Below are positions 1,484 to 28,507 of a DNA stretch of 36,297 nucleotides, one piece after another; positions within the stretch are counted from its first letter, which is position 1; each line of letters begins with the position of its first letter. The stretch lies in contig JABEUV010000277.1 in NCBI GenBank assembly GCA_013044195.1, positions 1 through 36,297 on the forward strand. The letters run 5' to 3'. A model generated the notes under the pieces. The model searched no databases, was not told the DNA's origin, and worked only from the letters and a program-made list of their open reading frames with translations. The stretch comes from Elusimicrobiota bacterium. Its GTDB lineage: Bacteria > Elusimicrobiota > Elusimicrobia > UBA1565 > UBA9628. The translations under genes and the position numbers were made by a program.

Positions 1484-1489
1484 TATACT
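1484..1489 (+). promoter_or_regulatory. -10 box predicting a leaderless mRNA
   Basis: TATACT ends exactly 6 nt before the ATG at 1496, which places the expected transcription start on the A of the start codon. No convincing -35 is seen (TGGCTC at 1461-1466 is a poor match). No Shine-Dalgarno sequence precedes this ATG. Confidence 0.55.
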
Positions 1490-1495
1490 GCGCCC

Positions 1496-2641
1496 ATGCC
1501 CGCGTCACCCTCGGCGCCGCCCGCCGCCGCCGTCCCTCCGGTCGGACTGGGAGAGCTCTTCGAGCAGTCGATGCACGCACTTGTGCGCGCGCCGGAGGCC
1601 TTCCGCGCCGCCGCCGCGCGTCCGGCACCCGGCTACGTCACGGCCTTGACGCTGGCGCTGGCCGACGGCGCCCTGGCCATCGCGATCAATCTGGTTCATT
1701 CGGCGATCTCCAACCCGCGCTTCTTAGATCGCTATTCCGGCGGTCTTCTGGCCGCGATCTCAGCCGCGGTCCTGGGAGTCTACTTGAGCCTGTTTCTCCT
1801 GCTCGCCGTCGTGCTCTACGCCCTGGGCTTGGCGCTGGGGGGGAAAGGAGAGTTCAACCGCGGCGTCCAGGCCGCGGCCGCGCTGACCTTGCTTGCGCCC
1901 CTGCAGTCCGCGGCCAACGCCCTGCCCCACGCCTGGCCGCTGCCGGCGCTTTTGGCTGGCTGGATGGCGGCCGGGGCGCTGACCGGATTGTTCTCCGCCT
2001 CGCTGCCCGCCGCGCGGGCGCTGTGCGGCGTGATGACCGCCGCCATGATCGGCGGACAGTTTTTCCTGCGCGCCGTCGCATCCCGCGCCTCCGACCTGGC
2101 CGCCGCGGCCAGCGTCGCCGCGCAGGCCGCGCAGATCAACGCCCAGTTCGCCCGAGGCTTCCCCATGACGCCGCCCTCCTCCGCGGGTTTTCCCGCCGCC
2201 GTCGACGCTCCCGCCGCTCCGGGCTCCGCGCCCGCGCCGCGGGCCGTCTCCGGACTCGATCTTCTGCGCGCGCCCGATGACGGCGACGCCGCTTTGGCCG
2301 CGCCCCGCACGCCCGCCCAGGTCGCGTCCGACGCCGCGGCGCTCAACACGCAAGCGCAGGGCGTCGAACAAAGCGCGGTGGCCATGCTCGACGCGTTCGC
2401 GCCCATGCTGAACAACCCGGCGCTGACCCAACGGATGAACGCCCAGCAGCAATATCAGTTCCGGCAGTTGAACGGCATGATCAAAAATCTACGCGCGCAG
2501 ATCGCGTCGGGCCGCGCGGTGCCGCCCGCCGAGATGAACCGGCAGATGCTGCAGATTCAGCAGTTGGCCATGGGCTTGATGATGACCCAGGCCGCCGCCC
2601 CGCCGCCGACCCCGCACCTGAAGCCGATGGGCAACCCATGA
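1496..2641 (+). CDS. Yip1-like multi-span membrane protein with long Ala/Pro-rich tail
   Basis: A 381-residue membrane protein. The N-terminal half (about residues 15-210) has the layout of the Yip1 family: a short amphipathic lead (LGELFEQSMHALVRAPEAFR), then about five hydrophobic segments. The C-terminal half is unlike Yip1. It is a low-complexity Ala/Pro linker (about 215-285) followed by a Gln/Met-rich, probably helical stretch (about 290-370) with QQQYQFRQLN and QMLQIQQLAMGLMM. An in-frame open frame extends further upstream, but I start at 1496 because a -10 box fits leaderless initiation there and the upstream part overlaps the divergent kinase gene. Its stop overlaps the next start by 4 bp (ATGA), so it leads an operon with the pteridine-reductase-like SDR and a lipoprotein. 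The molecular role is unknown. The Yip1 assignment is from topology and the N-terminal motif, not a strong signature. Confidence 0.7.
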   Translation: MPASPSAPPAAAVPPVGLGELFEQSMHALVRAPEAFRAAAARPAPGYVTALTLALADGALAIAINLVHSAISNPRFLDRYSGGLLAAISAAVLGVYLSLFLLLAVVLYALGLALGGKGEFNRGVQAAAALTLLAPLQSAANALPHAWPLPALLAGWMAAGALTGLFSASLPAARALCGVMTAAMIGGQFFLRAVASRASDLAAAASVAAQAAQINAQFARGFPMTPPSSAGFPAAVDAPAAPGSAPAPRAVSGLDLLRAPDDGDAALAAPRTPAQVASDAAALNTQAQGVEQSAVAMLDAFAPMLNNPALTQRMNAQQQYQFRQLNGMIKNLRAQIASGRAVPPAEMNRQMLQIQQLAMGLMMTQAAAPPPTPHLKPMGNP

Positions 2642-3375
2642 GCCTGGAAGGCAAGGTCGCGCTGGTGACGGGGGCCGCGCGCCGCGTGGGACGCACCATC
2701 TCGCTGGCGCTTGCGGCCAAGGGCACGCGCGTGGCCGTGCACTACCGCACCTCGGTGGCCGACGCGCGGCGCGTGGCCGCGGCGGTCAAGACCTTGTCGG
2801 GCGCGGACGCCGACGTGTTCCGCGCCGACCTGGGCGATCCGGCCGCCCCGGCCAAGCTCGCCGACGCGGTCTCACGCCGCTTCGGCCGCATCGACATCCT
2901 AATCAACTCCGCGTCGCTCTATGAAAAAGCCCCGTTCGGCGACGCCGCGCCGGAAGATTGGGATCGGCACATGGCCGTCAACGCGCGCGCTCCGTTCTTT
3001 CTGGCGCAGGCCTGTGCGCCGTGGCTGAGGCGCTCCGGTGAAGGCGTCGTGATCAATATCGCGGACTGGGCGGGATTGCGCCCTTACGCGGACTACGGCC
3101 CCTACTGCGCGTCGAAGGCGGCCCTGCTGTGCGTCAACAAGGCGCTGGCCAAGGCGCTGGCGCCCACGGTGCGCGTCAACGCGATCCTGCCCGGACCCGT
3201 GCTGGCGCCCGAGGCCATGAGCGAGGGCGACAAACGTAAAATGTCCGAAGCCACGTTGCTCAAGCGCCTCGGCTCTCCCGAGGCCGTCGCACGCGCCTGC
3301 GTGTTCCTGGCCGAGTCCGCCGACTACACGACCGGCGCGGAACTGACCGTGGACGGGGGGAGGCTGATCGCGTGA
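2638..3375 (+). CDS. SDR oxidoreductase, pteridine reductase (FolM/PTR1)-like
   Basis: A 245-residue short-chain dehydrogenase. The nucleotide-binding loop is TGAARRVG at residues 11-18. The Arg inside this glycine loop is typical of pteridine reductases (PTR1, FolM), where it favours NADPH. INSAS takes the place of the NNAG motif, the catalytic pair is Tyr156/Lys160 (YCASK), and the C terminus has the usual TGAELTVDGG. I infer reduction of dihydro- to tetrahydropterins with NADPH in the cytoplasm. Support comes from the convergent folB-queD pair 300 bp away, which also handles pterins. Translation is coupled to the Yip1-like gene (ATGA overlap) and to the following lipoprotein (GTGA overlap). 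A 3-oxoacyl-ACP reductase is the main alternative. Confidence 0.82.
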   Translation: MSLEGKVALVTGAARRVGRTISLALAAKGTRVAVHYRTSVADARRVAAAVKTLSGADADVFRADLGDPAAPAKLADAVSRRFGRIDILINSASLYEKAPFGDAAPEDWDRHMAVNARAPFFLAQACAPWLRRSGEGVVINIADWAGLRPYADYGPYCASKAALLCVNKALAKALAPTVRVNAILPGPVLAPEAMSEGDKRKMSEATLLKRLGSPEAVARACVFLAESADYTTGAELTVDGGRLIA

Positions 3376-3692
3376 GGCGAGAGCGCGGCCCGGCGGTTTG
3401 CCTGCTGGCCGCGTCGCTGTCGGCCTGCGCGACGCTGTCGTCGAAAAGCGTCGGCTCTTGGGGACGCGAGTACTCAGGTGTACGCTGCGTGGGCACCGAG
3501 GATTACTGGAGCGCCTTGGACGACGGTCTGAAGGCGACGCAATTGATCTACTCTGGCACGGACTACCTGTTTTCTGCGGCGGCGGACACGGCCTTGCTTC
3601 CCTTCGACCTGATCGTCCACGGCGTCAAGAAGCTGACCGGCGAGACCAAAGACCGCGCGCCGCTCTGCAACGACAACAGCCGCCCCGGCTAG
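3372..3692 (+). CDS. small lipoprotein, function unknown
   Basis: A 106-residue lipoprotein. A basic start (MRRERG) and hydrophobic stretch lead to the lipobox LSAC, with the lipidated Cys at 18. The mature part of about 88 residues has three further Cys and no domain I recognise. It contains a hydrophobic patch around DTALLPFDLIVHGVKKLTG, as seen in YceK-like small outer-membrane lipoproteins; that resemblance is weak. The start is a GTG inside GTGA, overlapping the stop of the SDR, so it is the last gene of this operon. Its TAG shares the four bases CTAG with the stop of the convergent queD-like gene, leaving no room for a conventional terminator. Confidence 0.78.
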   Translation: MRRERGPAVCLLAASLSACATLSSKSVGSWGREYSGVRCVGTEDYWSALDDGLKATQLIYSGTDYLFSAAADTALLPFDLIVHGVKKLTGETKDRAPLCNDNSRPG

Positions 3693-4294
3693 GCGCGGCG
3701 GGCGGGAATCTGCATCGCTGTCGCCGGTGTTTTGAAGCGCGCGCCCTTCAGGAGCTTCTCCCACATCTTCGGGTCCGACCAGTCGGCCATCACCGTCGGT
3801 GAAAAGACGACGCGCGCCAGATCAATGCGCCCCATCTCCAGGCTGTCGGCGTCGGCCTCGAAGCTCTGCGCACAGCCGGTCTCGGTCTCGTGCAACGTCA
3901 CCGAGTGAACGCGCGCGGCCTCGTCGCCGTTGGCGCGCTCGCTGGCGGCCAAAAGGGCGCGCGCGCCGACGAAGATCACGCGGGAGAGCTGTTCGGCCGT
4001 CGGCGAGACGGGGAGGCGTATCCAGCGCCGCGAGTGCCTCTCGATGGAACGCCGGAAGTCCGCGGACTCTCTCTCCCAGAACAGGGTCGCGTGATCGAAG
4101 CCGTCCAAGAAATCCCTGACGTGCCGCTTGAGCAGGCCGAAGTCGTAGACCATCTGGCCGCGGTCCAGGCGCTCGGCCGAGAGTTCAAGCTCGCAGCGGA
4201 AGCTGTGGCCGTGCAGAGAATACTTGCAGCGGTCCGACGAGCAGTTGCGCACGATGTGCGCGGCCTCGAAGCGGTACAACTTGCGGATGATCAT
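3689..4294 (-). CDS. queD: 6-pyruvoyl-tetrahydropterin synthase / QueD-family protein, long form
   Basis: A 201-residue T-fold enzyme acting on 7,8-dihydroneopterin triphosphate. Zinc ligands are His13 (FEAAH) and the HGH pair His28/His30, with the catalytic-type Cys23 just before (RCKYSLHGH). Later motifs include YDFGLLK, FDHATLFW, PTAEQLSR and the catalytic HETETG. It is about 80 residues longer than E. coli QueD. It resembles the long form I associate with epsilonproteobacteria, with an SP(T/S)AEQ(L/F)SRV segment and a C-terminal DPKMWEKLLKG extension. The likely product is 6-carboxytetrahydropterin for queuosine, but a tetrahydropterin role is possible given the adjacent folB and pteridine-reductase-like genes. 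No other queuosine gene is in the window. The start overlaps the stop of folB (ATGA). Confidence 0.88.
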   Translation of the reverse strand: MIIRKLYRFEAAHIVRNCSSDRCKYSLHGHSFRCELELSAERLDRGQMVYDFGLLKRHVRDFLDGFDHATLFWERESADFRRSIERHSRRWIRLPVSPTAEQLSRVIFVGARALLAASERANGDEAARVHSVTLHETETGCAQSFEADADSLEMGRIDLARVVFSPTVMADWSDPKMWEKLLKGARFKTPATAMQIPARRA

Positions 4295-4653
4295 CGCTCC
4301 CTCCGTATCTCGACGAAAACCTCGCGCGTGCGCGGCATGACCGCGGGCTTCTTGTGCGCGCGCACCGTCGCGGCCCGCGCCGCCGGCGCGGCCTTCAGCG
4401 CCGCCGCCGCGGCGCGCTCCGCCACGGTCTCAAGCAACGCGCGCTCGCCCGCCTCGGCCTGAGCGCGCACCGCCTTCTCGACGGCCCAATAGTCCGCCGC
4501 GCGCCGGAAATCGTCGCGCTCCGCCGCGGCCGCCGCGTCGACCTCCAAGCCCACGTCGATCAATATCTTCTGCCGCCGCGCGCGCTCCTGAGCGCTCACG
4601 CCCACGCGGCAATGGCAGTCGATGCCCATCAGCCAGACGAAGTCTCGCTTCAT
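4291..4653 (-). CDS. folB: dihydroneopterin aldolase
   Basis: A 120-residue FolB-type T-fold protein that splits 7,8-dihydroneopterin into 6-hydroxymethyl-dihydropterin and glycolaldehyde in folate synthesis. It shows the N-terminal GIDCHCRVGVSAQERARRQ motif (FolB pattern of G, CxxG and E/R/Q positions), a VEKAV/LLETVAERAA helix region, and a late Lys (VRAHKKPAVMP) matching the conserved active-site lysine region. An upstream in-frame ATG at 4698 would add 15 residues. I prefer 4653 because it gives the usual family length and because TAGACT (4661-4666, minus strand) ends 7 nt before it, as at other leaderless starts here. It is first gene of a two-gene unit with the queD-like gene. Confidence 0.87.
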   Translation of the reverse strand: MKRDFVWLMGIDCHCRVGVSAQERARRQKILIDVGLEVDAAAAAERDDFRRAADYWAVEKAVRAQAEAGERALLETVAERAAAAALKAAPAARAATVRAHKKPAVMPRTREVFVEIRRER

Positions 4654-4660
4654 TGGCGAC

Positions 4661-4666
4661 AGTCTA
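4661..4666 (-). promoter_or_regulatory. -10 box predicting a leaderless folB mRNA
   Basis: On the minus strand TAGACT is followed by 7 nt and the ATG at 4653. This spacing matches the other leaderless candidates in the window and decides the folB start over the upstream ATG at 4698, which lies upstream of this box. Confidence 0.5.
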
Positions 4667-4698
4667 TCAATCCGGAAGGCGCGAGGCGAGGCGGGCAT

Positions 4699-4725
4699 TA
4701 TGATAAATTGCGTTCATTCGGAGAG
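4699..4725 (+). promoter_or_regulatory. -10 box and Shine-Dalgarno of the SDR gene at 4731
   Basis: TATGAT at 4699-4704 is a plausible -10. GGAGAG at 4720-4725 is a clear Shine-Dalgarno sequence 5 nt before the ATG at 4731. This gene therefore uses a leadered start, unlike several neighbours. Confidence 0.5.
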
Positions 4726-4730
4726 AAATC

Positions 4731-5564
4731 ATGAAAGACAAAATCTGCCTGGTCACCGGAGCCACCAGCGGGATCGGCTACGAAGCCGCGCTGGACCTGG
4801 CGCGCCGCGGGGCGACGGTGGTGCTGACGGCGCGCGACAAGGCGCGGGGGGAGGCGGCGCGCGAGGCGATTCTTCAGGCGACCGGAGCGAAGGCGGAGCT
4901 GTTGACGTGCGACCTGGCCGACCTAGCCTCGGTGCGCGCGGCGGCGGCGGAGTTCAAGACGCGTCACGACCGCCTGCACGTTTTGCTCAACAACGCGGGC
5001 GTCTGGCACCGCGCGCGACGGGTCACGAAGGACGGCCTGGAGGAAACGTTCCAGGCCAATCACCTGGGACCGTTCCTGCTCACCACGCTCCTGCTCGACG
5101 TCCTCAAGGCCTCGGCTCCGGCGCGAATCGTCAACGTGAGTTCCGCCCTGCATTACCGCGGTCGCCTGAATTGGGACGACCTGCAGATGGAGAAGCGCTT
5201 CGACGGGACCAAGGCCTACTCGGACTCGAAGCTGGCCAACGTGCTGTTCACGCGCGCGCTGGCCGGGCGCTTGACGGGAACCGGCGTCACGGTCAACGCG
5301 GTCCATCCCGGCGTGATCGCGACCAGCTTGTCGCGGGACATGCCCGCGTTCATCCGCGCGCTTCTGCCCTTCGTGCTGTCCACGCCCGCCAAAGGCGCCC
5401 AGCCTCTGGTGCGCCTGGCCGCCGGCGCCGACGTGGAGGGCGTCACCGGCCGATACTTCGACAAACTCAAAGAGAAGAAAGCGGCCGCATTCGCCCTGGA
5501 CGACACGGCCGCCGCGCGGCTGTGGAAGGTCAGCGTGGAGCTGGCGAGCGCCGACAAATCCTGA
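4731..5564 (+). CDS. short-chain dehydrogenase, retinol dehydrogenase/WWOX-like
   Basis: A 277-residue SDR of the retinol dehydrogenase / protochlorophyllide reductase-like group. The NAD(P) loop TGATSGIG is at residues 9-16, NNAGVWH follows mid-protein, the catalytic Ser lies in NVSSALH and the catalytic pair is Tyr163/Lys167 (YSDSK). PGVIATSLSRD is the usual substrate-loop sequence of this subgroup. Substrate unknown; this subgroup reduces or oxidises a wide range of lipophilic alcohols and carbonyls. It stands alone between the divergent folB and a small ribbon-helix-helix gene that starts 9 bp after its stop. Confidence 0.88.
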   Translation: MKDKICLVTGATSGIGYEAALDLARRGATVVLTARDKARGEAAREAILQATGAKAELLTCDLADLASVRAAAAEFKTRHDRLHVLLNNAGVWHRARRVTKDGLEETFQANHLGPFLLTTLLLDVLKASAPARIVNVSSALHYRGRLNWDDLQMEKRFDGTKAYSDSKLANVLFTRALAGRLTGTGVTVNAVHPGVIATSLSRDMPAFIRALLPFVLSTPAKGAQPLVRLAAGADVEGVTGRYFDKLKEKKAAAFALDDTAAARLWKVSVELASADKS

Positions 5565-5573
5565 TATCCTGAT

Positions 5574-5741
5574 ATGATGGAAATGGCGAAGGTCTATTTG
5601 GACTTGCCGGAACGAGCATTGGTACGCCTGAAAGCCATGGCCCGGCTTCGAAAGACGACGGTCTCGCATCTCATCCTACAGGCGGTCAAACGGACCTACG
5701 GAATTCACACCCGCCTCGGCCGCGAAACCAACCGGAATTAG
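5574..5741 (+). CDS. 55-residue ribbon-helix-helix (CopG/Arc-type) protein
   Basis: A very small gene, MMEMAKVYLDLPERALVRL onwards, ending TAG. The N-terminal KVYLDLPERALVRLKAMA gives the beta strand and first helix of a ribbon-helix-helix fold. A turn with the TTVSHLILQAVKR pattern gives the second helix, and a basic tail follows (GIHTRLGRETNRN). Such proteins dimerise and bind operator DNA, often as antitoxins or repressors; here no toxin gene is adjacent. It starts 9 bp after the SDR stop, through the near-direct repeat CCTGATAT CCTGATAT. TATCCT at 5565-5570 ends 6 nt before the second in-frame ATG (5577), so a leaderless start there is possible. The palindromic repeat at 5811-5844 lies 69 bp downstream and is a candidate target, which is speculation. 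Confidence 0.68.
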   Translation: MMEMAKVYLDLPERALVRLKAMARLRKTTVSHLILQAVKRTYGIHTRLGRETNRN

Positions 5742-5806
5742 AATCCACACGTCTATCCCAATGCTCCGTCCGGATAAGCAGGGCCGAGCGTCGCGACGTA
5801 ACCCAA

Positions 5807-5844
5807 CTAACGATAATCACTATCACCGGTGATAGTGATTATCG
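5807..5844 (+). repeat. palindromic repeat family, copy 2, with a perfect 34-bp palindrome
   Basis: CTAACGATAATC at 5807 begins a 29-bp match to copies 1 and 3. Bases 5811-5844 form a perfect 34-bp palindrome centred on CACCGGTG, with arms CGATAATCACTATC and GATAGTGATTATCG. It lies 71 bp upstream of trxB and 16-21 bp upstream of the first of two TATAAT boxes if counted to a -35 position, so it could act as an operator, a cruciform or a transcript hairpin. In the other two copies only one arm matches well; this copy is the symmetrical version. Confidence 0.8.
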
Positions 5845-5887
5845 ACACCGCGGACGAGCATCCGCCAACCCGTCCGAAAGCCGAGTC

Positions 5888-5909
5888 TATAATCTCAAAT
5901 TGTTATAAT
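5888..5909 (+). promoter_or_regulatory. double TATAAT promoter of the trxB-lipB operon
   Basis: Two perfect TATAAT boxes lie 16 bp apart, at 5888-5893 and 5904-5909. The second ends 6 nt before the trxB ATG at 5916, predicting transcription from the start codon itself. The first would give a leader of about 16 nt. No Shine-Dalgarno sequence is present before 5916. Confidence 0.6.
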
Positions 5910-5915
5910 CGGCCC

Positions 5916-6851
5916 ATGAGCACCGAACAGAAGAAGGTCGTCATCATCGGCTCCGGCGCGGCCGCGTATACCGCCGCGATCTACGCCGCGCGCGCCAGCC
6001 TGGAGCCCTTGGTGTTCGGCGGCGTGGCGATGGGCGGGCAGTTGATGATCACGTCGGACGTGGAGAATTTCCCGGGTTTCCCGGAGCCGGTCAACGGGCC
6101 GGAGTTGATGGAGCGCATGCAGAAGCAGGTGGAGCGCCTGGGCGTGAAGATCGTGCGCGAGTACGTCTCCAAGGTGGACCTGTCCAAAGGACCGTTCACC
6201 GTGGAATCCACCGAAGGCACGAAGGCAAGCGCCCTGTCGCTGATCGTGGCCACCGGCGCCAACGCCAAGTGGCTGGGCATCGAGTCGGAAAAGAAGCTCA
6301 TGGGCCACGGCGTGTCCGCGTGCGCCACCTGCGACGGCTTCTTCTTCAAAGGCAAGGAGGTCGTCGTGGTCGGCGGCGGCGACACGGCCATGGAAGAGGC
6401 CAACTTCCTGACTAAGTTCGCGACGAAGGTGACGGTCGTGCATCGGCGCGAATCCTTGCGCGCCTCCAAGATCATGGCCGAGCGCGCGCAAAAGAATCCG
6501 AAGATTTCCTTCATCTGGAACTCCGCGGTCGACGAGGTGACCGGCAACGGCCACGTCGACGGCGTGAAGCTCAAGAACCTGAAGACCGGCGCGGTCTCGC
6601 CGCTGAAGTGCGACGGCGTGTTCGTCGCCATCGGCCATCAGCCGACCACGGATTTCCTCGGGGGCCAACTCAAGCTCGATGAGAACGGCTACGTGGACGC
6701 CGACGACCGCACCCGCACCTCCGTGCCCGGCGTGTTCGCCGCCGGCGACGTAATGGACCACCGCTACCGCCAGGCCATCACCGCGGCCGGCGCGGGCTGC
6801 AAGGCCGCGCTGGAAGCGGAACGCTGGCTGGCCGATCAGGGCCACCACTGA
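5916..6851 (+). CDS. trxB: thioredoxin-disulfide reductase
   Basis: A 311-residue low-molecular-weight thioredoxin reductase: FAD enzyme passing electrons from NADPH to thioredoxin in the cytoplasm. It shows the N-terminal FAD loop GSGAAAYTAA, GGQLMITSDVENFPGF, the redox-active CATC at Cys136-Cys139, the NADPH loop VVGGGDTAMEEA, HRRESLRAS and the C-terminal FAD motif GVFAAGDVMD. An upstream in-frame extension exists, but the standard family N terminus and the leaderless promoter support 5916. It is first in the lipoylation/pyruvate dehydrogenase operon; lipA starts 1 nt after its stop. The linkage may supply reductant for lipoyl or LipA sulfur chemistry, which is inference. Confidence 0.96.
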   Translation: MSTEQKKVVIIGSGAAAYTAAIYAARASLEPLVFGGVAMGGQLMITSDVENFPGFPEPVNGPELMERMQKQVERLGVKIVREYVSKVDLSKGPFTVESTEGTKASALSLIVATGANAKWLGIESEKKLMGHGVSACATCDGFFFKGKEVVVVGGGDTAMEEANFLTKFATKVTVVHRRESLRASKIMAERAQKNPKISFIWNSAVDEVTGNGHVDGVKLKNLKTGAVSPLKCDGVFVAIGHQPTTDFLGGQLKLDENGYVDADDRTRTSVPGVFAAGDVMDHRYRQAITAAGAGCKAALEAERWLADQGHH

Positions 6852-6852
6852 C

Positions 6853-7758
6853 ATGACCGCGGACGCGCCGCGCCGCGCGCTCCCACCCTGGCTGAAGGTG
6901 GGACTTGCGACCGGGCCGAACGTCGCGCGGCTGAAGACGGCCTCGCGCTCGCGCGGGCTGTCCACGGTGTGCGAGGAAGCGCGCTGTCCGAATCTGGCGG
7001 AGTGCTGGGGCGGCGGCACGGCCACGTTCATGGTGATGGGCGACACCTGCACTCGCGGCTGTCGCTTTTGCTCCGTCGCGACAGCCGCGCGGCCGTCTTT
7101 GCCCGACCCGCAGGAGCCCTCAAAACTGGCCCTGACTTTAAAAGAAATGGCCGTGGAGTACGCCGTGCTGACCACGGTGTGCCGCGACGACTTGCCGGAT
7201 CAGGGCGCCTCTCACCTGGCGGCGTGCCTCCGTGAAGTGAAAGCGGTTTGCCCGGACATGAAGCTGGAAATGCTGCTCCAGGATTTTCGCGGCGACAAGT
7301 CGCTTTTGGAGCTCGTGCTGGGCGCGGGCGCCGACGTGATCGCCCACAACGTCGAGGTCGTGGAACGATTGACTTCGTCGGTGCGCGACGCGAAGGCGGG
7401 CTACCGCCAGTCCCTTGAAATCCTGGCCCACGCGAAGAAATATTCGCCGCAGACGCCGACGAAGACGTCCCTCATGCTCGGATTAGGGGAAACCGAAGCC
7501 GAATTGATTCAAACGTTCAAGGATATCCGTTCAGTCGGCACCGAGATCCTGACGCTCGGCCAGTACCTCAAGCCCACCGGCTCGCGCCACCACCTGCCCG
7601 TCGAGCGCTTCGTCCCGCCGGAGGAATTCGATCGCCTGGGAGAGCTGGCGCGAAGCCTGGGATTCTTGTACGTCGCCTCCGGACCGTTCGTACGTTCGTC
7701 GTATCGCGCCGCGGAACTATTCCTGAAGGGCCGCCTGGAGAAACCCGTTGCCGCTTAA
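6853..7758 (+). CDS. lipA: lipoyl synthase (radical SAM)
   Basis: A 301-residue lipoyl synthase that inserts two sulfurs into protein-bound octanoyl groups. The auxiliary cluster motif is Cys40-Cys45-Cys51 (CEEARCPNLAEC). The radical SAM motif is Cys66-Cys70-Cys73 (CTRGCRFC). The C-terminal RSSY serine that ligates the auxiliary cluster is present (FVRSSYRAAE). Length is typical. It sits between trxB and pdhA, and its last 11 nt overlap the TTG start of pdhA, so translation is likely coupled. Its targets are surely the lipoyl domains of pdhC in the same operon, with lipB completing the route. Confidence 0.97.
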   Translation: MTADAPRRALPPWLKVGLATGPNVARLKTASRSRGLSTVCEEARCPNLAECWGGGTATFMVMGDTCTRGCRFCSVATAARPSLPDPQEPSKLALTLKEMAVEYAVLTTVCRDDLPDQGASHLAACLREVKAVCPDMKLEMLLQDFRGDKSLLELVLGAGADVIAHNVEVVERLTSSVRDAKAGYRQSLEILAHAKKYSPQTPTKTSLMLGLGETEAELIQTFKDIRSVGTEILTLGQYLKPTGSRHHLPVERFVPPEEFDRLGELARSLGFLYVASGPFVRSSYRAAELFLKGRLEKPVAA

Positions 7759-8875
7759 AACCGTCGCGACGCACGCCGTCCAGCGCCTGGAAATACTCGC
7801 CTCGGACGGGACCGTCGACGCCAAGCTGATGCCGAAGGTCCAGGACGACCTCCTGCTCAAGATGTACCGGCTGATGTTCCAGATTCGCGCATTCGACGAG
7901 CGTGCGATCCTGCTCCAGCGCTCCGGACGCCTGGGAACCTACCCAATGATCACCGGCCAGGAGGCCACGCAGTGCGTGCCGCCGCTGTGCTTGAAGGCCA
8001 GCGACTGGGCCGTGCCCACCTACCGCGGCGGCGGTGTCTATTTCGCGCGCGGCATGCAGATGCGCCACGCGCTGCTCTACTGGGCCGGCGACGATCGCGG
8101 CACGCATTTTCCCGACGGCAACAACGACATGATGTTCTCCATCCCCGTGGGCACGCACCTCACGCAGGTCGCGGGCCTGGCCTGGGGGGAAAAGTTCAAG
8201 AAAAAGGGCGGCGTCGCGCTCACGTACTGCGGCGACGGCACGTCGTCCAAGGGCGACCTGCACGAGGCCCTGACCTTCGCCGGCCAGTTCAAGCTTCCGG
8301 CCATCTACATCATCGAAAACAACGGCTGGGCCATCTCCGTGCCGCGCGCGCGCCAGGCCGCCAGCGCCACTTTGGCGCAAAAGGCGTGGGGCTACGGCGT
8401 GGCGGGCATTCAAGTGGACGGCAACGACGCGCTGGCCGTTTATTCGGCGACGGCCGACGCGGTGGCGCGCGCGCGCCGCGGGGAAGGCACGACCCTCATC
8501 GAGTGCGAGACGTACCGAATGGGCCACCACACCACGGCCGACGACGCCGCGCGCTATCGAGACGCAAAGGACGTCGAGGCGTGGAAGAAGAAAGACCCGA
8601 TCTCCCGGTTCAAGAAATTTCTGACCGCGCGCAAGTTATGGAGCGACGCGAAGGAAAAGAATCTGACGGAAGAAACCAAGGCCTGGATCGACGGCGAGGT
8701 GAAGGCCTACGAAGAAACGCCGCCGCCCAACCCCTTGGACATGTTCGCCAACAACTACGAACACGCGACCTGGCCGCTGGTGGAACAGCGCGCCCAATTG
8801 GAAGAGCTTCTGAAGTTCAAGGGCGGCGCGAAGATATTGACCGAACTGCCTCCGACGGAAGGGAGGTTCCCGTGA
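7748..8875 (+). CDS. pdhA: pyruvate dehydrogenase E1 component, alpha subunit
   Basis: A 375-residue thiamine diphosphate-dependent E1 alpha subunit of the heterotetrameric (Gram-positive/mitochondrial) type. The ThDP motif is GDG at residue 162 followed by Asn-Asn at 191-192. YRGGGVYFARG, THFPDG and QKAWGYGVAGIQVDGND are E1-alpha hallmarks, and RMGHHTTADD matches the phosphorylation-loop region. The start is TTG at 7748 inside the end of lipA, preceded by GGAG at 7736-7739; the next ATG lies well inside conserved sequence. The closest resemblance I recall is Bacillus PdhA. A branched-chain or acetoin dehydrogenase is the alternative, but a complete set with lipA and lipB favours pyruvate. 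Confidence 0.92.
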   Translation: MPLKTVATHAVQRLEILASDGTVDAKLMPKVQDDLLLKMYRLMFQIRAFDERAILLQRSGRLGTYPMITGQEATQCVPPLCLKASDWAVPTYRGGGVYFARGMQMRHALLYWAGDDRGTHFPDGNNDMMFSIPVGTHLTQVAGLAWGEKFKKKGGVALTYCGDGTSSKGDLHEALTFAGQFKLPAIYIIENNGWAISVPRARQAASATLAQKAWGYGVAGIQVDGNDALAVYSATADAVARARRGEGTTLIECETYRMGHHTTADDAARYRDAKDVEAWKKKDPISRFKKFLTARKLWSDAKEKNLTEETKAWIDGEVKAYEETPPPNPLDMFANNYEHATWPLVEQRAQLEELLKFKGGAKILTELPPTEGRFP

Positions 8876-9876: not shown

Positions 9877-9887
9877 AAAGGACTCCC

Positions 9888-11645: not shown

Positions 11646-11655
11646 GAGGCCACTC

Positions 11656-13797: not shown

Positions 13798-13803
13798 TAG
13801 AAT
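13798..13803 (+). promoter_or_regulatory. -10 box predicting a leaderless mRNA
   Basis: TAGAAT is followed by 7 nt and the GTG at 13811. The surrounding bases are AT-rich (AAACAAAAAATCG upstream). No Shine-Dalgarno sequence is present, and the GTG begins a clean signal peptide. Confidence 0.5.
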
Positions 13804-15003: not shown

Positions 15004-15009
15004 TAGAAT
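15004..15009 (+). promoter_or_regulatory. -10 box predicting a leaderless mRNA
   Basis: TAGAAT ends 7 nt before the ATG at 15017. An in-frame ATG at 15008 overlaps the -10 box itself and would lie upstream of the predicted transcription start, so 15017 is the better start. Confidence 0.5.
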
Positions 15010-17091: not shown

Positions 17092-17120
17092 TTGACAAAG
17101 CCAGAGTGCGGGGCAATACT
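17092..17120 (+). promoter_or_regulatory. sigma70-type promoter of the C39-like gene
   Basis: A perfect TTGACA at 17092-17097, a 17-bp spacer and AATACT at 17115-17120. The expected transcription start is near 17127, leaving a leader of about 14 nt with no clear Shine-Dalgarno sequence before the ATG at 17141. Confidence 0.65.
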
Positions 17121-17140
17121 ACTCAAGTCTCAATACCCCT

Positions 17141-19260: not shown

Positions 19261-19468
19261 GCAGGTCGCGCAGGAACTTCTTCGTGTCCGGCACGGCGTG
19301 ATAGGCCGCCGCCTTGGACGGCGTGGAACTGAGCGTGACCACGGTGCCCGCATCGAAGTAGACGCCGTGGCGGCGTAGGACCTCAAGTACACGATCGCGG
19401 TCGCGCGCCAGAAGATCGAAAAGGACCGGCTCGCGCCGCGCTACGCCGCCGCGCTTTCTTTTCGCCAT
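19241..19468 (-). CDS. 75-residue hypothetical protein
   Basis: A small basic protein (MAKRKRGGVARRE start) with a helical middle (VLFDLLARDRDRVLEVLRRHGVYFD) and a C-terminal FLRDLLKASRV. No family recognised. It would be the last gene of the minus-strand acyl-CoA operon. Its ATG lies 28 nt inside the end of the 3-hydroxyacyl-CoA dehydrogenase gene, after AAGGG, so it could be translated by coupling. It also overlaps the convergent lipoprotein by 20 nt. The overlaps at both ends lower confidence, but without it the operon end would hold an otherwise unexplained 180-bp open stretch. Confidence 0.5.
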   Translation of the reverse strand: MAKRKRGGVARREPVLFDLLARDRDRVLEVLRRHGVYFDAGTVVTLSSTPSKAAAYHAVPDTKKFLRDLLKASRV

Positions 19469-22047: not shown

Positions 22048-22048
22048 G

Positions 22049-22855
22049 TCATTCTCCTCTGAACGCCGGGGGCCGCTTCTCCAGGAACGCGGCGATCCCC
22101 TCGGCGTGGTCTTTCGTGCGGCCCAGGTGGGATTGGAGCTGAGCCTCGTATTCCAGTTGATCCTCAAGGACGGGCGTCTCCAGCGCCCGATTGAACGCGC
22201 GCTTGGTCAGCGCCAGCGACAGCGGGGCAACGGCGAGAAGCTCCGCGCACAGCGCCGCGACGGCCGCGTCCAATTCCTCCGGAGCGACCACGCGGTTGAC
22301 CAGGCCCAGCGCCAGCGCGCGCTCGGCCGCAATCGGCTTGGCCAGCCACGCGTGCTCCAACGCCAGCGACAGTCCCAGCGCGCGCGGCAAAAGCCAGGAC
22401 ATGCCGGAGTCCGGCACCAGGCCGACCTTGGCGAAGGCGTTGAAGAATTTGGCGTCCGCCGCGCAGACCTTCAAGTCGCAGGAGAGAGCCAGGCTTGCGC
22501 CCGCGCCGGCCGCCACTCCCCGCACCGCGGCGACCACGGGCTTCTCGACGCGACGGATCGCGGCGATCAGCGGGTTGAAACTGCGCCGCAGTTCCGCGCC
22601 GTGCTCGAAGCGGCCCTGCGCCTGACGGACCTTCACGTCGCCCAGGTCCGCGCCCGCGCAGAACGCGCGGCCCGCGCCCGCGATCACGATCGCGCGCACG
22701 GCTTTGTCGCGTCCGGCCTTCACCACCGCCTCGGCCAGGCCTCTGAGCATGGTCCCGGTCAGCGCGTTGAGCGCCTCGGGCCGGTTCAAAGTCAAGGTCA
22801 GCACGCCGCCGCGAACGTCGGATAAAAATTCGGCGGGGGGGTTCTCGACGCTCAT
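22049..22855 (-). CDS. enoyl-CoA hydratase/isomerase, PaaG-like
   Basis: A 268-residue crotonase-fold protein. The oxyanion-hole parts are AFCAGADLGD and RGVAAGAGASLALSCDL. VGLVPDSGMSWLLPRALG carries the Asp-Ser-Gly seen in PaaG and other isomerases, where classical hydratases have an acidic residue in PGAGGT-type context. In PaaG this Asp drives conversion of ring epoxide to oxepin-CoA; I infer an isomerase role. The start overlaps the stop of the preceding crotonase (ATGA), and the PaaA-like gene starts 1 nt after its own stop. The PaaG and PaaA order supports an aromatic-CoA theme, but other isomerisations are possible. Confidence 0.85.
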   Translation of the reverse strand: MSVENPPAEFLSDVRGGVLTLTLNRPEALNALTGTMLRGLAEAVVKAGRDKAVRAIVIAGAGRAFCAGADLGDVKVRQAQGRFEHGAELRRSFNPLIAAIRRVEKPVVAAVRGVAAGAGASLALSCDLKVCAADAKFFNAFAKVGLVPDSGMSWLLPRALGLSLALEHAWLAKPIAAERALALGLVNRVVAPEELDAAVAALCAELLAVAPLSLALTKRAFNRALETPVLEDQLEYEAQLQSHLGRTKDHAEGIAAFLEKRPPAFRGE

Positions 22856-23633
22856 CGGCCCTCGAACGCCGGCGCGCGCTTCTCGGCGAAGGCGCGCATG
22901 CCCTCGGCCTGGTCGTTGGTGTCGAACAGCGCGTAGAAGGCCTCGCGCTCGGCCTTCAGCCCCGCGTCCAGGCCGCGATCGACCGCGGCGGCGACGGCCA
23001 GCTTGGCCGCGCGCGCGGCCAGGGGTGCCAGTTCCGCGATGCGCCGCGCCATGCGCTTGGCCTCGTCGAGCAGGACCTCGGGTGCGACCACGCGGCAGAC
23101 CAAGCCGCGTTCCAACGCCTCGCGCGCGCTCAGGCGCCGACCGGTCAGAGCCATGTCCATGGCCAGCGCCTTGCCCACGGCCTTGGTCAGGCGCTGGGTG
23201 CCGCCGGCGCCCGGAATCACGCCCAGTTGTATCTCCGGCTGGCCGAACACCGCGTTCTCCGCGGCCACGATCAGGTCGCAGGCCAGCGCCAGCTCGCAGC
23301 CGCCGCCCAGCGCGTAGCCCGCCACCGCCGCGATGGTGGGCTTTTTAAGTCGGCCGATGCGGTCCCAACGCGCCAGGTGCTCGCCCAGCGCCGCGCGCGC
23401 GGCCTTGCCGGAGGCCAGGTCCTTCATCTCCCCAATATCCGCGCCCGCCGCGAACGCGCGCGGGCCGCCGGTGACGATGATCGCGCGGATCTCCGGCGCG
23501 GCCTCGAACTCGGTCAGCGCCGCCTCCAGCGCCTTCATTGTCGACAGCGACAAAGCGTTCAGCGCGTGCGGACGGTGCAACGTCGCGATGCCCACGGGGC
23601 CGTCGCGCTCGATGAGAACTTCGCGCTCGACGT

Positions 23634-23637
<4 letters not shown>
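22852..23637 (-). CDS. enoyl-CoA hydratase, PaaF/crotonase-like
   Basis: A 261-residue crotonase. It has AFAAGADIGEM, AGYALGGGCELALACDL for CoA and oxyanion binding, and QPEIQLGVIPGAGGTQRL with Glu in the position used by true hydratases. A C-terminal trimerisation stretch ends AEKRAPAFEGR. It should add water to 2-enoyl-CoA. A longer open frame upstream lies inside the aldehyde dehydrogenase gene. I start at 23637, where ATG overlaps the stop of that gene (ATGA). The neighbouring isomerase-type crotonase differs at the acidic residue, so the two are probably not redundant. Confidence 0.92.
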
Positions 23638-25142
<1,505 letters not shown>

Positions 25143-25228
25143 GTTTCTGGCCTCAGGGATGCCGCTTCGGCGCGGCTCCAGCGCTATTGAACAAAATTCG
25201 CGAGGAAATGGAAGGTCTGTTGCCCGCA

Positions 25229-25257
25229 TTGACAGCGGCGTTACCGCATGCTAGACT
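25229..25257 (+). promoter_or_regulatory. sigma70-type promoter of the cytochrome c peroxidase gene
   Basis: Perfect TTGACA at 25229-25234, 17-bp spacer, TAGACT at 25252-25257. The expected transcription start is near 25264, directly before the inverted repeat at 25266-25280. Confidence 0.7.
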
Positions 25258-25265
25258 TAGTTATC

Positions 25266-25280
25266 GGATAATTATTATCC
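25266..25280 (+). promoter_or_regulatory. PerR/Fur-family-like operator
   Basis: GGATAATTATTATCC is a 7-1-7 inverted repeat whose ATAAT-N-ATTAT core equals the core of the Bacillus PerR box. It lies just after the predicted transcription start of a peroxidase gene, a classic repression site. The match to a known box plus the peroxide-related target makes peroxide or metal control likely. No Fur-family gene is in the window. Confidence 0.6.
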
Positions 25281-25283
25281 AAC

Positions 25284-25289
25284 AGGAGA
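25284..25289 (+). promoter_or_regulatory. Shine-Dalgarno of the peroxidase gene
   Basis: AGGAGA lies 6 nt before the ATG at 25296. It is one of the few strong ribosome binding sites in the window and fixes this start. Confidence 0.7.
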
Positions 25290-25295
25290 ACCGCA

Positions 25296-26318
25296 ATGAT
25301 CCTTTATGCCCTCGCGCTCACGCTCGCCGCCGCTCCCGCGCCGACCCGCGCCGACGACTTCGGCGGCTCCGACTACCCGTATAAAGTTCCTCTCGGACTC
25401 AAGTTCGCCCCGGATGTCCCCAGCGACGACCCGATCACCGATGAAAAGGTCGCCTTGGGCAAGCTCCTGTATTTCGACAAGCGCATCTCCGGCGACGGCA
25501 CCGTCTCCTGCGCCACCTGCCACGACCCGACGAAGGGCTGGACGGACCGCTCGCCCGTGTCCTCGGGCATCAAGGGCCAGCGCGGCACCCGCTCCGCGCC
25601 CACCGTGCTCAACGCGGCCTATATGGACGTTCAATTCTGGGACGGCCGCGCGGCAAGCCTTGAGGAGCAGGCCAAGGGGCCGATCCAGAACCCCGTCGAG
25701 ATGGGCTCCACGCACGAGGCCACGGTCAAGCGCATCGCGGCCGTCAAAGGCTACGCCCCGCTGTTTAAGGCCGCCTTCGGCGACGATAAGGTCGACATCG
25801 ACCGCGTGGCCAAGGCGATCGCCAGCTTCGAACGCACTATTCTGACCGGCAATGCGCCCTACGATCGATGGCAGGCCGGAGACAAGAAAGCTCTGAGCGC
25901 GGCCGCCATCCGGGGCATGGCCCTATTCAATGATCCCCAAAAGGCCGACTGCACGGTCTGCCACAGCGGCTTCAACTTCTCCGACTCGTCCTTCCATAAC
26001 CTGGGCGTGGGGATGAAGGCGGCGAAGCCGGACCTGGGACGCTTCGACGTGACCAAGAAGGACAAGGACCGCGGCGCGTTCAAGACGCCGACCTTGCGCA
26101 ACCTGGCCGACACCGCGCCCTACATGCACGACGGCTCCGAAAAGACTCTTCAGCAGGTCGTCGAGTTCTACAACCGCGGCGGCGACAAGAACCCCCAGCT
26201 GGACGGCCATATCCGTCCGCTGCATCTGACGCCCGGAGAGGTCGGCGACCTGGTCGCGTTCCTGGACGCGCTCAACGGCGACAAGGTGCTGATCGCGCCG
26301 CCGAAACTGCCCGAATAA
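25296..26318 (+). CDS. di-haem cytochrome c peroxidase
   Basis: A 340-residue periplasmic peroxidase of the CcpA/MauG family, which reduces hydrogen peroxide with electrons from cytochrome c or a quinol route. A signal peptide covers about residues 1-20. Two haem c sites are present: CATCH at 72-76 (peroxidatic, low-potential) and CTVCH at 219-223 (electron-transfer). PTVLNAAYMDVQFWDGRAASLEEQA, FKTPTLRNLADTAPYMHDGS with the distal Met277 ligand and HLTPGEVGDLVAFLDAL are standard for the family. It is a single-gene unit with its own promoter, operator and Shine-Dalgarno sequence, divergent from the aldehyde dehydrogenase operon. Confidence 0.95.
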   Translation: MILYALALTLAAAPAPTRADDFGGSDYPYKVPLGLKFAPDVPSDDPITDEKVALGKLLYFDKRISGDGTVSCATCHDPTKGWTDRSPVSSGIKGQRGTRSAPTVLNAAYMDVQFWDGRAASLEEQAKGPIQNPVEMGSTHEATVKRIAAVKGYAPLFKAAFGDDKVDIDRVAKAIASFERTILTGNAPYDRWQAGDKKALSAAAIRGMALFNDPQKADCTVCHSGFNFSDSSFHNLGVGMKAAKPDLGRFDVTKKDKDRGAFKTPTLRNLADTAPYMHDGSEKTLQQVVEFYNRGGDKNPQLDGHIRPLHLTPGEVGDLVAFLDALNGDKVLIAPPKLPE

Positions 26319-26324
26319 CGGCGG

Positions 26325-26783
26325 CTACTCCCGCTCGAGGACTTCGTTCATCGCGGCGGCAAAGCGCGCGGCGATGAGGCGGAACTGCGCGATGCGGACG
26401 TCGTTGTCGCGGAAAGCCACGATCAGCGGCGGCTGGCGGCGCGTGGCCGGGTCGGGCTCGTAGCTGGCGAAGAACATGTACCAGACCGACTCGTCGAGCG
26501 GCTCGTCGCCGCGCGCGGTGGAGGGCAAAGTCGGGTCGACGCGAGTCAGCGCCGCGCGCGCGGACGCCGCGGCCGCACCCGCGAAGGCCAACTCGGAGGG
26601 CGATAGCTTCAGTATCTCCGCGCAGAAGCGCGTGAGCTCCGCCTCGCTCCAGCCGTCCAGATAGGCCAGCACGCCGCCGCGCGGCTGAGCCGTGCCGGCC
26701 CAGAGCGCCGCCTCTTCCGGCGCGGCCAAGACGGCCAGCCACACCTCGCGCCCGTCCAGTATCGCGACCTTTTCCAGGCTCAT
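26325..26783 (-). CDS. hypothetical protein, 152 residues
   Basis: An unrecognised cytoplasmic protein. Notable stretches are GREVWLAVLAAPEEAALWAG near the start, YLDGWSEAELTRFCAEIL, and the well-formed C-terminal half ESVWYMFFASYEPDPATRRQ and PPLIVAFRDNDVRIAQFRL. The alternation of strands and helices suggests a compact alpha/beta fold. It stands alone: convergent with the peroxidase (6 bp apart) and divergent from the thioesterase. TATAAT on the minus strand ends 7 nt before its ATG. Confidence 0.7.
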   Translation of the reverse strand: MSLEKVAILDGREVWLAVLAAPEEAALWAGTAQPRGGVLAYLDGWSEAELTRFCAEILKLSPSELAFAGAAAASARAALTRVDPTLPSTARGDEPLDESVWYMFFASYEPDPATRRQPPLIVAFRDNDVRIAQFRLIAARFAAAMNEVLERE

Positions 26784-26790
26784 CGGGAAA

Positions 26791-26796
26791 ATTATA
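26791..26796 (-). promoter_or_regulatory. -10 box predicting a leaderless mRNA; shared divergent site
   Basis: On the minus strand TATAAT ends 7 nt before the ATG at 26783. Only 20 bp separate the starts of the two divergent genes. The same bases read ATTATA on the plus strand, 7 nt before the thioesterase ATG at 26804, so one near-symmetrical site may serve both directions. Confidence 0.55.
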
Positions 26797-26803
26797 GCCG
26801 GAA

Positions 26804-27310
26804 ATGCTAGAAACGGGAATCGAAAACTGGCCCGAAGCCGATTGGACCCGGGTCCAGCCCTTCCCGTTTACGGAGGCTCGCGCGGCGTTCGCGGGCCTCA
26901 CCGCCGACGAGGGACGGCTGGAGCTGGCCTATTACCGCCGTCCGCGCGACGGGGCGCTGGTGGCGGTCGCGGACTTCGGCCCGCGCGCCCAGGGCGCGCC
27001 GGGGCTGGTGCACGGCGGGATGATCCTGACCGTGCTGGACGAGGCGCTGGGCGCGGCCTGCTGGGTGGCGGGGCACCCCTCGCTGACCGTGCGCCTGACA
27101 ACGGATTTCCACCGCAGCGTCCCGCTGGGCACGCGCGCCCTGGTGGAGACGCGCGTGCAGCCCGCGCGGCACCGAATCGTTGCGGCCACCGGAACCTTGC
27201 GCGGCCCGGACGGCACCGTCTACGCCGCCGCTCAGGGCCGCTTCATGCGCCTGGACGACGCCGCCTACGCGCGACTGTTCGGGCGCTCCAAAACGCCGAA
27301 GAAAAGCTAA
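26804..27310 (+). CDS. hotdog-fold thioesterase (PaaI/YiiD-like)
   Basis: A 168-residue hotdog protein. The central helix motif GLVHGGMILTVLDEALGAAC is characteristic of PaaI-type acyl-CoA thioesterases, with the general-base acidic residue in LDEA. LTTDFHRSVPLGTRALVETRV supplies the next strands. It probably hydrolyses an acyl-CoA in the cytoplasm. PaaI enzymes protect phenylacetate pathways, and a Paa-like operon lies 1.6 kb away, but the two are not in one operon. Its TAA stop is also the first three bases of the next gene's TAAAAT box. Confidence 0.85.
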   Translation: MLETGIENWPEADWTRVQPFPFTEARAAFAGLTADEGRLELAYYRRPRDGALVAVADFGPRAQGAPGLVHGGMILTVLDEALGAACWVAGHPSLTVRLTTDFHRSVPLGTRALVETRVQPARHRIVAATGTLRGPDGTVYAAAQGRFMRLDDAAYARLFGRSKTPKKS

Positions 27311-27313
27311 AAT
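27308..27313 (+). promoter_or_regulatory. -10 box predicting a leaderless aminotransferase mRNA
   Basis: TAAAAT ends 6 nt before the ATG at 27320. Its first three bases are the stop codon of the thioesterase gene. No Shine-Dalgarno sequence is seen. Confidence 0.5.
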
Positions 27314-27319
27314 CGGCGC

Positions 27320-28507
27320 ATGAAACTCGCCCACAGCTACGCGCGCCTCGGCACTGAAACCGCCTTCGAGGTGCTTGTCCGCGCCCGCGCCCTGGAGGCG
27401 CAGGGCCGCAAGATCGTGCATCTGGAGATCGGCGAGCCCGATTTCGATACGCCCAAGAACATCCGCGACGCCGCGAAAAAGGCGCTGGATGACGGCTTCA
27501 CGCACTACGGACCTTCGGCCGGCCTGCCCCAGACGCGCGCGGCCGTGGCCTCCTACGTCTCGCGCACGCGCGGCGTGCCGGTCGCACCCGAAGAGACCAT
27601 CATCGTGCCCGGCGGCAAGCCGGTGATCTTCTTCGCGATCCTGGCGCTGATTGATCCGGGCGACGAGGTGATCTACCCGAACCCGGGCTTTCCAATCTAC
27701 GAGTCGATGATCAACTACGTGGGCGGCAAGGCGGTGCCGCTGCCCATTCATGAGAACCGCGGCTGGGACTTCGATCCCGCGGAGTTGGAGCGCCTGCTCT
27801 CGCCCAAGACGAAGCTCGTGATCCTGAACTCGCCGGCCAACCCCACCGGCGGCGTGACCGGGGCCGAGGGCATGGAGCGCGTCGCGCGCGCCCTGCACGA
27901 CAAGGCGCCGGGCGCGCTGATCCTATCCGACGAGATCTACTCGCGGCTGGTCTACGAGGGCGAGCACCGGTCGATCCTGTCCTTGCCGGGCATGAAGGAG
28001 CGCACGCTCCTGCTCGACGGTTTCTCCAAGACCTGGGCGATGACCGGCTGGCGGCTGGGCTACGGCGTGGGTCCGAAGTGGCTCATCGACGCGATGGCGA
28101 AGCTCGCCACCAACGACCACTCCTGCGTGGCGTCCTTCGCGCAGATCGCGGCCATCGAGGCGCTGGAAGGCCCGCAGGACTCCGTGACCGCGATGGCGCG
28201 CGAGTTCGTGCGCCGCCGCGACGTCATCGTCGCGGGACTCAATGAATTGCCCGGCTTCACGTGCGCCACGCCGAAGGCTTCGTTTTACGTATTTCCGAAC
28301 ATCAAGGCCACGGGGCTGAGCTCCAAGGCTTTGGCCGACGCCCTGCTCAGCGAGGCCGGCGTCGCCTGCCTGTCCGGCACCGCGTTCGGCGCGCAGGGCG
28401 AGGGCTATCTGCGCTTCTCCTACGCCAACTCCGTGGAGAACATCCAGACCGCGCTTGCGGCCATCGGGCGCGTCCTGCCCAAGCTGGCCGCCGCTCCCGC
28501 GCGGTGA
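27320..28507 (+). CDS. class I PLP-dependent aminotransferase
   Basis: A 395-residue fold-type I aminotransferase close to the aspartate/aromatic group (AspC of Thermus and Bacillus type). Motifs are HLEIGEPDFDTPKNI, HYGPSAGLPQTRAAVA, PNPGFPIYES, NSPANPTGG with the PLP Asn, SDEIYSRLVY (Asp and Tyr) and the Schiff-base Lys237 in GFSKTWAMTGWRLGYG. The final arginine region is YLRFSYANS. Likely an amino-acid:2-oxoglutarate transaminase; precise specificity not readable. First of a three-gene operon with an ABC exporter and a HAD phosphatase, joined by two GTGA overlaps. Confidence 0.93.
   Translation: MKLAHSYARLGTETAFEVLVRARALEAQGRKIVHLEIGEPDFDTPKNIRDAAKKALDDGFTHYGPSAGLPQTRAAVASYVSRTRGVPVAPEETIIVPGGKPVIFFAILALIDPGDEVIYPNPGFPIYESMINYVGGKAVPLPIHENRGWDFDPAELERLLSPKTKLVILNSPANPTGGVTGAEGMERVARALHDKAPGALILSDEIYSRLVYEGEHRSILSLPGMKERTLLLDGFSKTWAMTGWRLGYGVGPKWLIDAMAKLATNDHSCVASFAQIAAIEALEGPQDSVTAMAREFVRRRDVIVAGLNELPGFTCATPKASFYVFPNIKATGLSSKALADALLSEAGVACLSGTAFGAQGEGYLRFSYANSVENIQTALAAIGRVLPKLAAAPAR

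What the first reader, a model, noticed from the sequence alone, without database searches (positions are those of the whole stretch)
1484..27320. Widespread leaderless initiation predicted
Seven transcription-unit starts have TANNNT ending exactly 6 or 7 nt before the start codon: 1496, 4653 (minus), 5916, 13811, 15017, 26783 (minus) and 27320. The 55-residue gene (5577) may be an eighth. Six of the boxes are TATAAT, TAGAAT, TAAAAT, TATACT or TAGACT types. None has a Shine-Dalgarno sequence. In DNA this GC-rich, such a fixed spacing is unlikely by chance.
Basis: partly seen in the sequence, partly recalled or inferred. Interest (0 to 1): 0.7.

Follow-up and report, generated by a model that had tools for sequence, protein, structure and literature searches.

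The report
Leaderless genes in an Elusimicrobiota genome
In this uncultured bacterium many genes appear to be copied into messages that begin exactly at the start codon, a known way of starting genes that seems common in its class of the phylum Elusimicrobiota.

Summary
In 597,550 sampled bases of the own genome, 72 of 252 unit-first genes have TANNNT 6-7 nt before a plausible start, against 6-18 of 252 at 14 control gap pairs (adjacent pair 8-9, 24, left out). With starts fixed by codon usage it is 38 of 252 against 2.87 per other gap. Operon-internal genes show no peak (2 of 202). Boxed genes mostly lack Shine-Dalgarno (SD; 4 of 72 against 54 of 180) and carry sigma-70 marks not selected for. 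At this spacing transcription should start at the start codon. The signal recurs in CP096137.1, a same-genus chromosome with intact anti-SD, and in 7 of 9 families of the class, and is weak in other classes. The 27320 box is kept in 10 of 10 same-genus relatives read, not in one same-order relative. Corrections: two of the seven follow a same-strand gene by 9-18 nt; the 1496 and 13811 boxes are mostly not conserved; 5577 is unsupported. No 5' ends are mapped. Known mechanism; apparently unreported in this phylum.

The parts
1484..1489 (+). -10 box TATACT, gap 6 to ATG 1496 (381-aa protein, no Pfam hit); divergent from a histidine kinase gene 37-1452
   Evidence: Rival start ATG 1451 scores 0.7 nats better by codon usage and has an SD 4-mer. 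By eye, N-termini of homologues (L269) are about as long as 1496 gives. No box before the ATG in the 6 relatives read (L269-L274)
4661..4666 (-). -10 box TAGACT, gap 7 to ATG 4653 (dihydroneopterin aldolase, FolB); rival in-frame ATG 4698
   Evidence: relatives not examined
5565..5570 (+). TATCCT, gap 6 to ATG 5577 (54-aa ORF from this ATG; ribbon-helix-helix-like look is recalled); candidate only
   Evidence: no Pfam hit
5904..5909 (+). -10 box TATAAT, gap 6 to ATG 5916 (thioredoxin-reductase-like protein)
   Evidence: TATAAT at gap 6 in 3 (L081, L083, L084) of the 4 nearest of 80 loci; the fourth (L082) has TATAAT further upstream and SD-like AAGGTGG; the other 76 loci were not examined
13798..13803 (+). 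-10 box TAGAAT, gap 7 to GTG 13811 (PLD-domain protein)
   Evidence: of 13 relatives whose start region was read, 2 have a box (L170 gap 6, L171 gap 8), 10 an SD-like 4-mer, 1 unclear (by eye; 2 more partial)
15004..15009 (+). -10 box TAGAAT, gap 7 to ATG 15017 (MFS transporter); the ATG 15008 begins inside the box
   Evidence: of 8 orthologues of 70% identity or more, 4 have a box at gap 5-9 (L178, L180, L181, L182) and 4 an SD-like 4-mer (by eye)
26791..26796 (-). -10 box TATAAT, gap 7 to ATG 26783 (152 aa, no Pfam hit)
   Evidence: a homologue was found in 2 of 13 relatives searched, both with a box at gap 8 (TATAAT in L267, TACACT in L268)
27308..27313 (+). -10 box TAAAAT, gap 6 to ATG 27320 (class I/II aminotransferase); its TAA is also the stop codon of 26804-27310
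   Evidence: box in 9 of 9 same-genus rows (gap 6 in 7, gap 7 in 1, gap 5 in 1) and at gap 6 in a tenth, G201; not in same-order L203. In none of the 9 does the upstream gene's followed frame stop in the box

Best explanation
The boxes are -10 elements of housekeeping (sigma-70-type) promoters placed so close to the coding sequence that RNA polymerase starts the mRNA on, or one or two bases before, the start codon. These mRNAs have no room for a Shine-Dalgarno site and would be translated as leaderless mRNAs, as recalled from other bacteria by recognition of the 5'-terminal AUG/GUG. In this Elusimicrobiota genome about 13-24% of first genes of transcription units are arranged so, while many operon-internal genes and other first genes use SD pairing, and others probably translational coupling. 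Shown here: box, spacing peak, restriction to first genes in the own genome, scarcity of SD, extended -10 and -35 marks, recurrence in relatives, intact anti-SD in a same-genus genome. Inferred: the actual 5' ends and the mode of ribosome binding.
For: Whole own genome: TATAATN6ATG 31 against 0 for the reversed pattern and 1 for TATAATN12ATG. TATAATN0-30ATG: 180 matches against 35 reversed; among the 100 listed, gap 6 holds 21 and gaps 7-9 together 26. Sampled genes; 72 of 252 against 6-18 per control pair, adjacent pair 24; 38 of 252 against 2.87 per other gap, p = 2e-19; in CP096137.1 32 of 182 against 1.62, p = 1e-21. Operon-internal genes, own genome: 2 of 202 at gap 6/7. SD in 4 of 72 boxed against 54 of 180 other first genes, Fisher p = 1e-5. 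No TTG start among the 72. Extended -10 TG in 12 of 38, TTG at -23 in 5 of 38 against 0-2 at the 12 other offsets tried. 27320 box in 9 of 9 plus G201. Anti-SD CACCTCCTTT in the same-genus 16S gene.
Against: Gene starts are from my own codon-usage caller. Control boxes at gaps of 14 or more also have TTG at -23 (12 of 94) and TG (24 of 94) in the own genome, so those marks show promoters, not leaderless ones. The 1496 box is absent in 6 of 6 relatives read, the 13811 box in 11 of 13, the 27320 box in same-order L203. Rival start 1451 fits codon usage slightly better than 1496 and has an SD 4-mer. In the same-genus chromosome operon-class genes also show a peak (10 of 126 at gap 6/7). The 47%-GC class member G019 gives only p = 0.02 in the gene-based test.
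Confidence: 0.9

Rival explanations
1. The TANNNT motif is an AT-rich non-SD ribosome-binding signal in a leader, as in Bacteroidota (recalled), not a promoter.
For: It sits where an RBS would sit and replaces SD.
Against: A ribosome signal should also mark operon-internal genes; in the own genome these show no peak (2 of 202 at gap 6/7) and use SD more than first genes (88 of 200 against 59 of 252). T1, A2 and T6, the most conserved -10 positions, define the box, and extended -10 TG and -35 TTG at 17-nt spacing accompany it.
Confidence: 0.04
2. The seven boxes are chance TANNNT matches, or arise from the freedom to choose starts.
For: Start choice inflates counts: control gap pairs give 6-18 of 252, the adjacent pair 24. 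5577 and perhaps 4653 could be chance. 27320 overlaps a stop codon.
Against: The same procedure at 14 control gap pairs averages 11.4 of 252 against 72; fixed codon-usage starts still give p = 2e-19; whole-genome TATAAT counts do not depend on gene calls; the 27320 box is kept in 9 of 9 same-genus rows though the upstream gene does not end in it there, and in a tenth.
Confidence: 0.03
3. Real promoters, but the listed genes are translated from longer transcripts or other starts.
For: 15017 and 27320 lie in operon-like arrays; 10 of 13 relatives of 13811 and 4 of 8 of 15017 are SD-like.
Against: The peak is tied to the start codon within 1-2 nt; only 4 of 72 boxed genes have SD.
Confidence: 0.04

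Closest known systems
[quoted passage not shown] PMC12340547, passages seen)
   Same: TANNNT about 6-7 bp upstream of the ORF, alongside SD-led genes in the same genome; in D. radiodurans mutation and reporter tests showed it to be the -10 region of leaderless genes.
   Different: Different phylum; here only computational. That paper also scanned reference genomes across bacteria; its main text does not name Elusimicrobiota, its supplementary tables were not read.
Leaderless transcriptome of Mycobacterium tuberculosis (PMC3898074, passages seen)
   Same: TANNNT -10 box, 26% of genes with a primary TSS leaderless; high GC (recalled).
   Different: There only 7% of boxes have TGN and no -35 motif was found; here TG is in 12 of 38 boxes and a weak TTG -35 in 5 of 38.
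Leaderless genes in 207 of 953 bacterial genomes (Zheng et al. 2011, PMC3160421, section 7 and passages seen)
   Same: Same signal; high-GC groups show TAnnnT.
   Different: The groups listed do not include Elusimicrobia by name; 'Other Bacteria 8 of 20' could include one.

Membership tests
Bacterial genome with frequent leaderless transcription | -10 box peak at 6-7 nt before start codons | tested here: met
Bacterial genome with frequent leaderless transcription | peak confined to first genes of transcription units | tested here: met
   own genome: 2 of 202 operon-internal against 26 of 215 first genes (37 genes 31-59 nt behind a same-strand gene not in that count; they show 11 at gap 6/7). 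In the same-genus genome weaker: 10 of 126 operon-class genes against 32 of 182
Bacterial genome with frequent leaderless transcription | boxed genes lack SD | tested here: met
   SD 4-mer in 4 of 72 against 54 of 180
Bacterial genome with frequent leaderless transcription | SD system retained for other genes | tested here: met
   anti-SD in the same-genus 16S gene (no 16S was found in the own bin); SD 4-mer in 88 of 200 operon-internal genes against 1,018 of 8,323 internal start codons
Bacterial genome with frequent leaderless transcription | primary 5' ends at the start codon | not testable with these tools
   no RNA data
AT-rich non-SD RBS type (Bacteroidota-like; recalled) | signal also before operon-internal genes | tested here: not met
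   own genome
Sigma-70-type promoter | -35 at 17-nt spacing or extended -10 | tested here: met
   TTG at -23 in 5 of 38; TG at -3 in 12 of 38 (a minority of boxes each)

The most novel reading that the evidence does not exclude
Leaderless initiation is a class-level trait inside one phylum: frequent in most families of the window's class, from 1.2-Mb to 4.6-Mb genomes, and nearly absent in the sister classes, with single genes switching between SD-led and leaderless. That would give a phylum in which the gain or loss of a leaderless regime can be followed gene by gene.
Probability: 0.5. Interest if true: 0.6.

Novelty: new member of a known kind. Interest (0 to 1): 0.45.

Why it matters
Start codons in these uncultured genomes may be mis-called by tools that expect SD, so proteins would be mis-trimmed (inference). 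The phylum also offers a test of when and why bacteria adopt leaderless mRNAs, since groups with and without the signal sit side by side while the anti-SD, where seen, is intact.

Tried and rejected
Rejected: AT-rich RBS (no peak in operon-internal genes of the own genome); chance (control gaps); the idea that the 27320 box is merely the upstream stop codon: in 7 of 9 relatives that gene stops 20-50 nt before the start, in L195 532 nt before it, and in L196 the followed frame runs past the start. Led nowhere: 16S in the own bin (none found); Pfam for 1496, 26783, 5577 (none); the 34-bp palindrome in the loci held (no exact match). Conservation of 1496 failed: 6 of 6 relatives read have no box before the ATG and by eye seem to follow another gene directly. 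The out-of-class gene-based profile is thin (121,288 bases, 39 first genes, no peak).

Literature: searches (92 papers, 15 listed; 24, 10 listed) gave the papers cited. 'Elusimicrob' with 'leaderless' gave 2 papers: of PMC10783764 I read passages, where Elusimicrobia stand only in an anti-SD table; PMC7448276 was seen only in the listing. One search gave 1 paper (on sigma-54), one search gave 1, one search gave 9 (8 listed); these were seen only in the listings. StartLink (PMC9581028): passages.
Full report
What the window is. The window is contig 224 (36,297 bases) of a 3.36-Mb, 299-contig genome. Its thioredoxin-reductase-like protein (5916) is 81% and 83% identical to proteins of two MAGs, the second being CP096137.1, an Elusimicrobiota chromosome; the next two loci (72-73%) are also labelled Elusimicrobia. 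A same-genus genome in the search set (G205) is a single contig of exactly the length of CP096137.1, 3,802,950 bases. The organism is therefore a high-GC Elusimicrobiota.

The observation. All seven, not six, belong to the listed types. My codon-usage gene caller makes 15 of 34 window genes unit-first; five have the box. 15017 and 27320 follow a same-strand gene by 18 and 9 nt.

The genome-wide test. I took a sample not chosen by the motif: every fifth contig plus C1, C297 and C299, up to 20 kb each, 63 contigs and 597,550 bases. With starts fixed by codon usage alone, TANNNT at gaps 6 and 7 occurs 38 times in 252 first genes, against 2.87 per other gap. Allowing any start within 4 nats, it is 72 of 252 against 6-18 for 14 control gap pairs; the adjacent pair 8-9 gives 24. 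After background subtraction that is about 13% and 24% of first genes. Operon-internal genes: 1 and 1 of 202; internal in-frame start codons: 8 and 12 of 8,323. Whole-genome counts that need no gene calls agree: TATAATN6ATG 31, TATAATN12ATG 1. TATAATN0-30ATG has 180 matches; in the 100 that were listed, gap 6 holds 21, gaps 7-9 hold 9, 11 and 6, other gaps 0-5 each.

Promoter, not ribosome site. The 72 sequences aligned on the box show marks that were not selected for: A-rich positions 4-5 of the box, T at -3 (33 of 72) and G at -2 (43 of 72), an extended -10, and T at -23 (27 of 72), the first base of a -35 at 17-nt spacing. With fixed starts, TG stands at -3 in 12 of 38 and TTG at -23 in 5 of 38; boxes at gaps of 14 or more show the same marks (24 and 12 of 94), as expected if the same promoter type also makes leadered mRNAs. 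An SD 4-mer is found in 4 of 72 boxed and 54 of 180 unboxed first genes, in 88 of 200 operon-internal genes and before 1,018 of 8,323 internal start codons. No boxed gene starts with TTG.

Relatives. In the same-genus chromosome the peak is as strong: 32 of 182 first genes against 1.62 per other gap; there operon-class genes also show 10 of 126 at gap 6/7, perhaps promoters inside gene arrays. In a 47%-GC member of family f3 (G019) the gene-based signal is weak, 19 of 187 against 5.59 per gap, p = 0.02. The 16S gene of CP096137.1 ends in CACCTCCTTT, so its anti-SD is intact. Over 198 genomes of the phylum, TATAATN6ATG against TATAATN12ATG gives 197 against 14 in the own genus (7 genomes), 420 against 82 in the family (16), 2,556 against 710 in f3 (52), 946 against 432 in f4 (17); 29 against 6 in f2 (1), 12 against 5 in f5 (1), 43 against 18 in f7 (3), 35 against 17 in f8 (2); but 41 against 60 in f6 (2) and 9 against 14 in f9 (1). 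The other classes give 4,287 against 3,663 (103 genomes, 5 of them with a ratio of 2 or more). As excess per genome this is about 26, 36 and 30 in the own genus, f3 and f4, against 6 in the other classes. The out-of-class sample is AT-rich (33% GC), which raises background, so some use there is not excluded.

Gene by gene. 27320: box in 9 of 9 same-genus relatives with a full start region, gap 6 in seven, 7 in one and 5 in one, with T1, A2, T6 kept while the inner bases vary. A tenth, G201, has TAGAAT at gap 6, by its coordinates. The same-order L203 (69% identity) has no box, and partial or distant matches were set aside. In the window the box's TAA doubles as the stop codon of the thioesterase-like gene 26804-27310. 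In 7 of 9 relatives that gene stops 20-50 nt before the start, in L195 532 nt before it, and in L196 the frame runs past it, so the box is not kept as a stop codon. 5916: 3 of the 4 nearest relatives keep TATAAT at gap 6. 26783: both relatives found, of 13 searched, keep a box, at gap 8. 15017: of 8 close orthologues 4 have a box at gap 5-9, 4 an SD-like 4-mer (by eye). 13811: of 13 relatives 2 have a box, 10 an SD-like 4-mer such as GGAGG, 1 is unclear (by eye); so the gene seems to have changed mode, the direction being unknown. 1496: no box in the 6 relatives read; the start itself fits N-termini of similar length (by eye), though ATG 1451 fits codon usage slightly better. 4653 was not tested in relatives. 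5577 is a candidate only.

Comparison. Spacing and motif equal those reported for D. radiodurans, where the -10-motif occurs about 6-7 bp upstream of the ORF and was tested by mutation and reporters (PMC12340547, passages), and the TANNNT box of M. tuberculosis (PMC3898074, passages). Zheng et al. 2011 (PMC3160421, section 7 and passages) do not name Elusimicrobia among groups with leaderless genes. I found no paper that reports leaderless genes in this phylum in the searches, most of whose hits were seen only as listings; supplementary tables were not read. The finding is a new clade of a known kind.

Noticed in passing
window 5811-5844: Perfect 34-bp palindrome CGATAATCACTATCACC/GGTGATAGTGATTATCG between the 55-aa ORF and the 5916 gene; probably an operator, perhaps of the small protein or a metal regulator (inference). 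No exact match to its core in the 274 loci held.
   Followed up: partly
window 25266-25280: GGATAATTATTATCC, a Fur/PerR-box-like inverted repeat (recalled likeness), just upstream of a di-haem cytochrome c peroxidase gene 25296-26318.
   Followed up: partly
window 27308-27313: One TAAAAT serves both as stop codon (TAA) of the upstream gene and, by inference, as -10 box of the next gene; in none of 9 relatives does the upstream gene's followed frame end in the box.
   Followed up: yes
window 2638, 4294, 8872, 16345, 18661, 20511, 22855, 23637, 28504, 30264, 32951: 11 of 19 operon-class starts overlap the previous gene by 4 nt, 8 of these 11 without an SD 4-mer, suggesting translational coupling.
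   Followed up: no
L210-L229 (stretches of G205, length of CP096137.1): Operon-class genes there also carry boxes at gap 6 (7 of 126) and gap 7 (3 of 126), hinting at leaderless promoters inside gene arrays.
   Followed up: no
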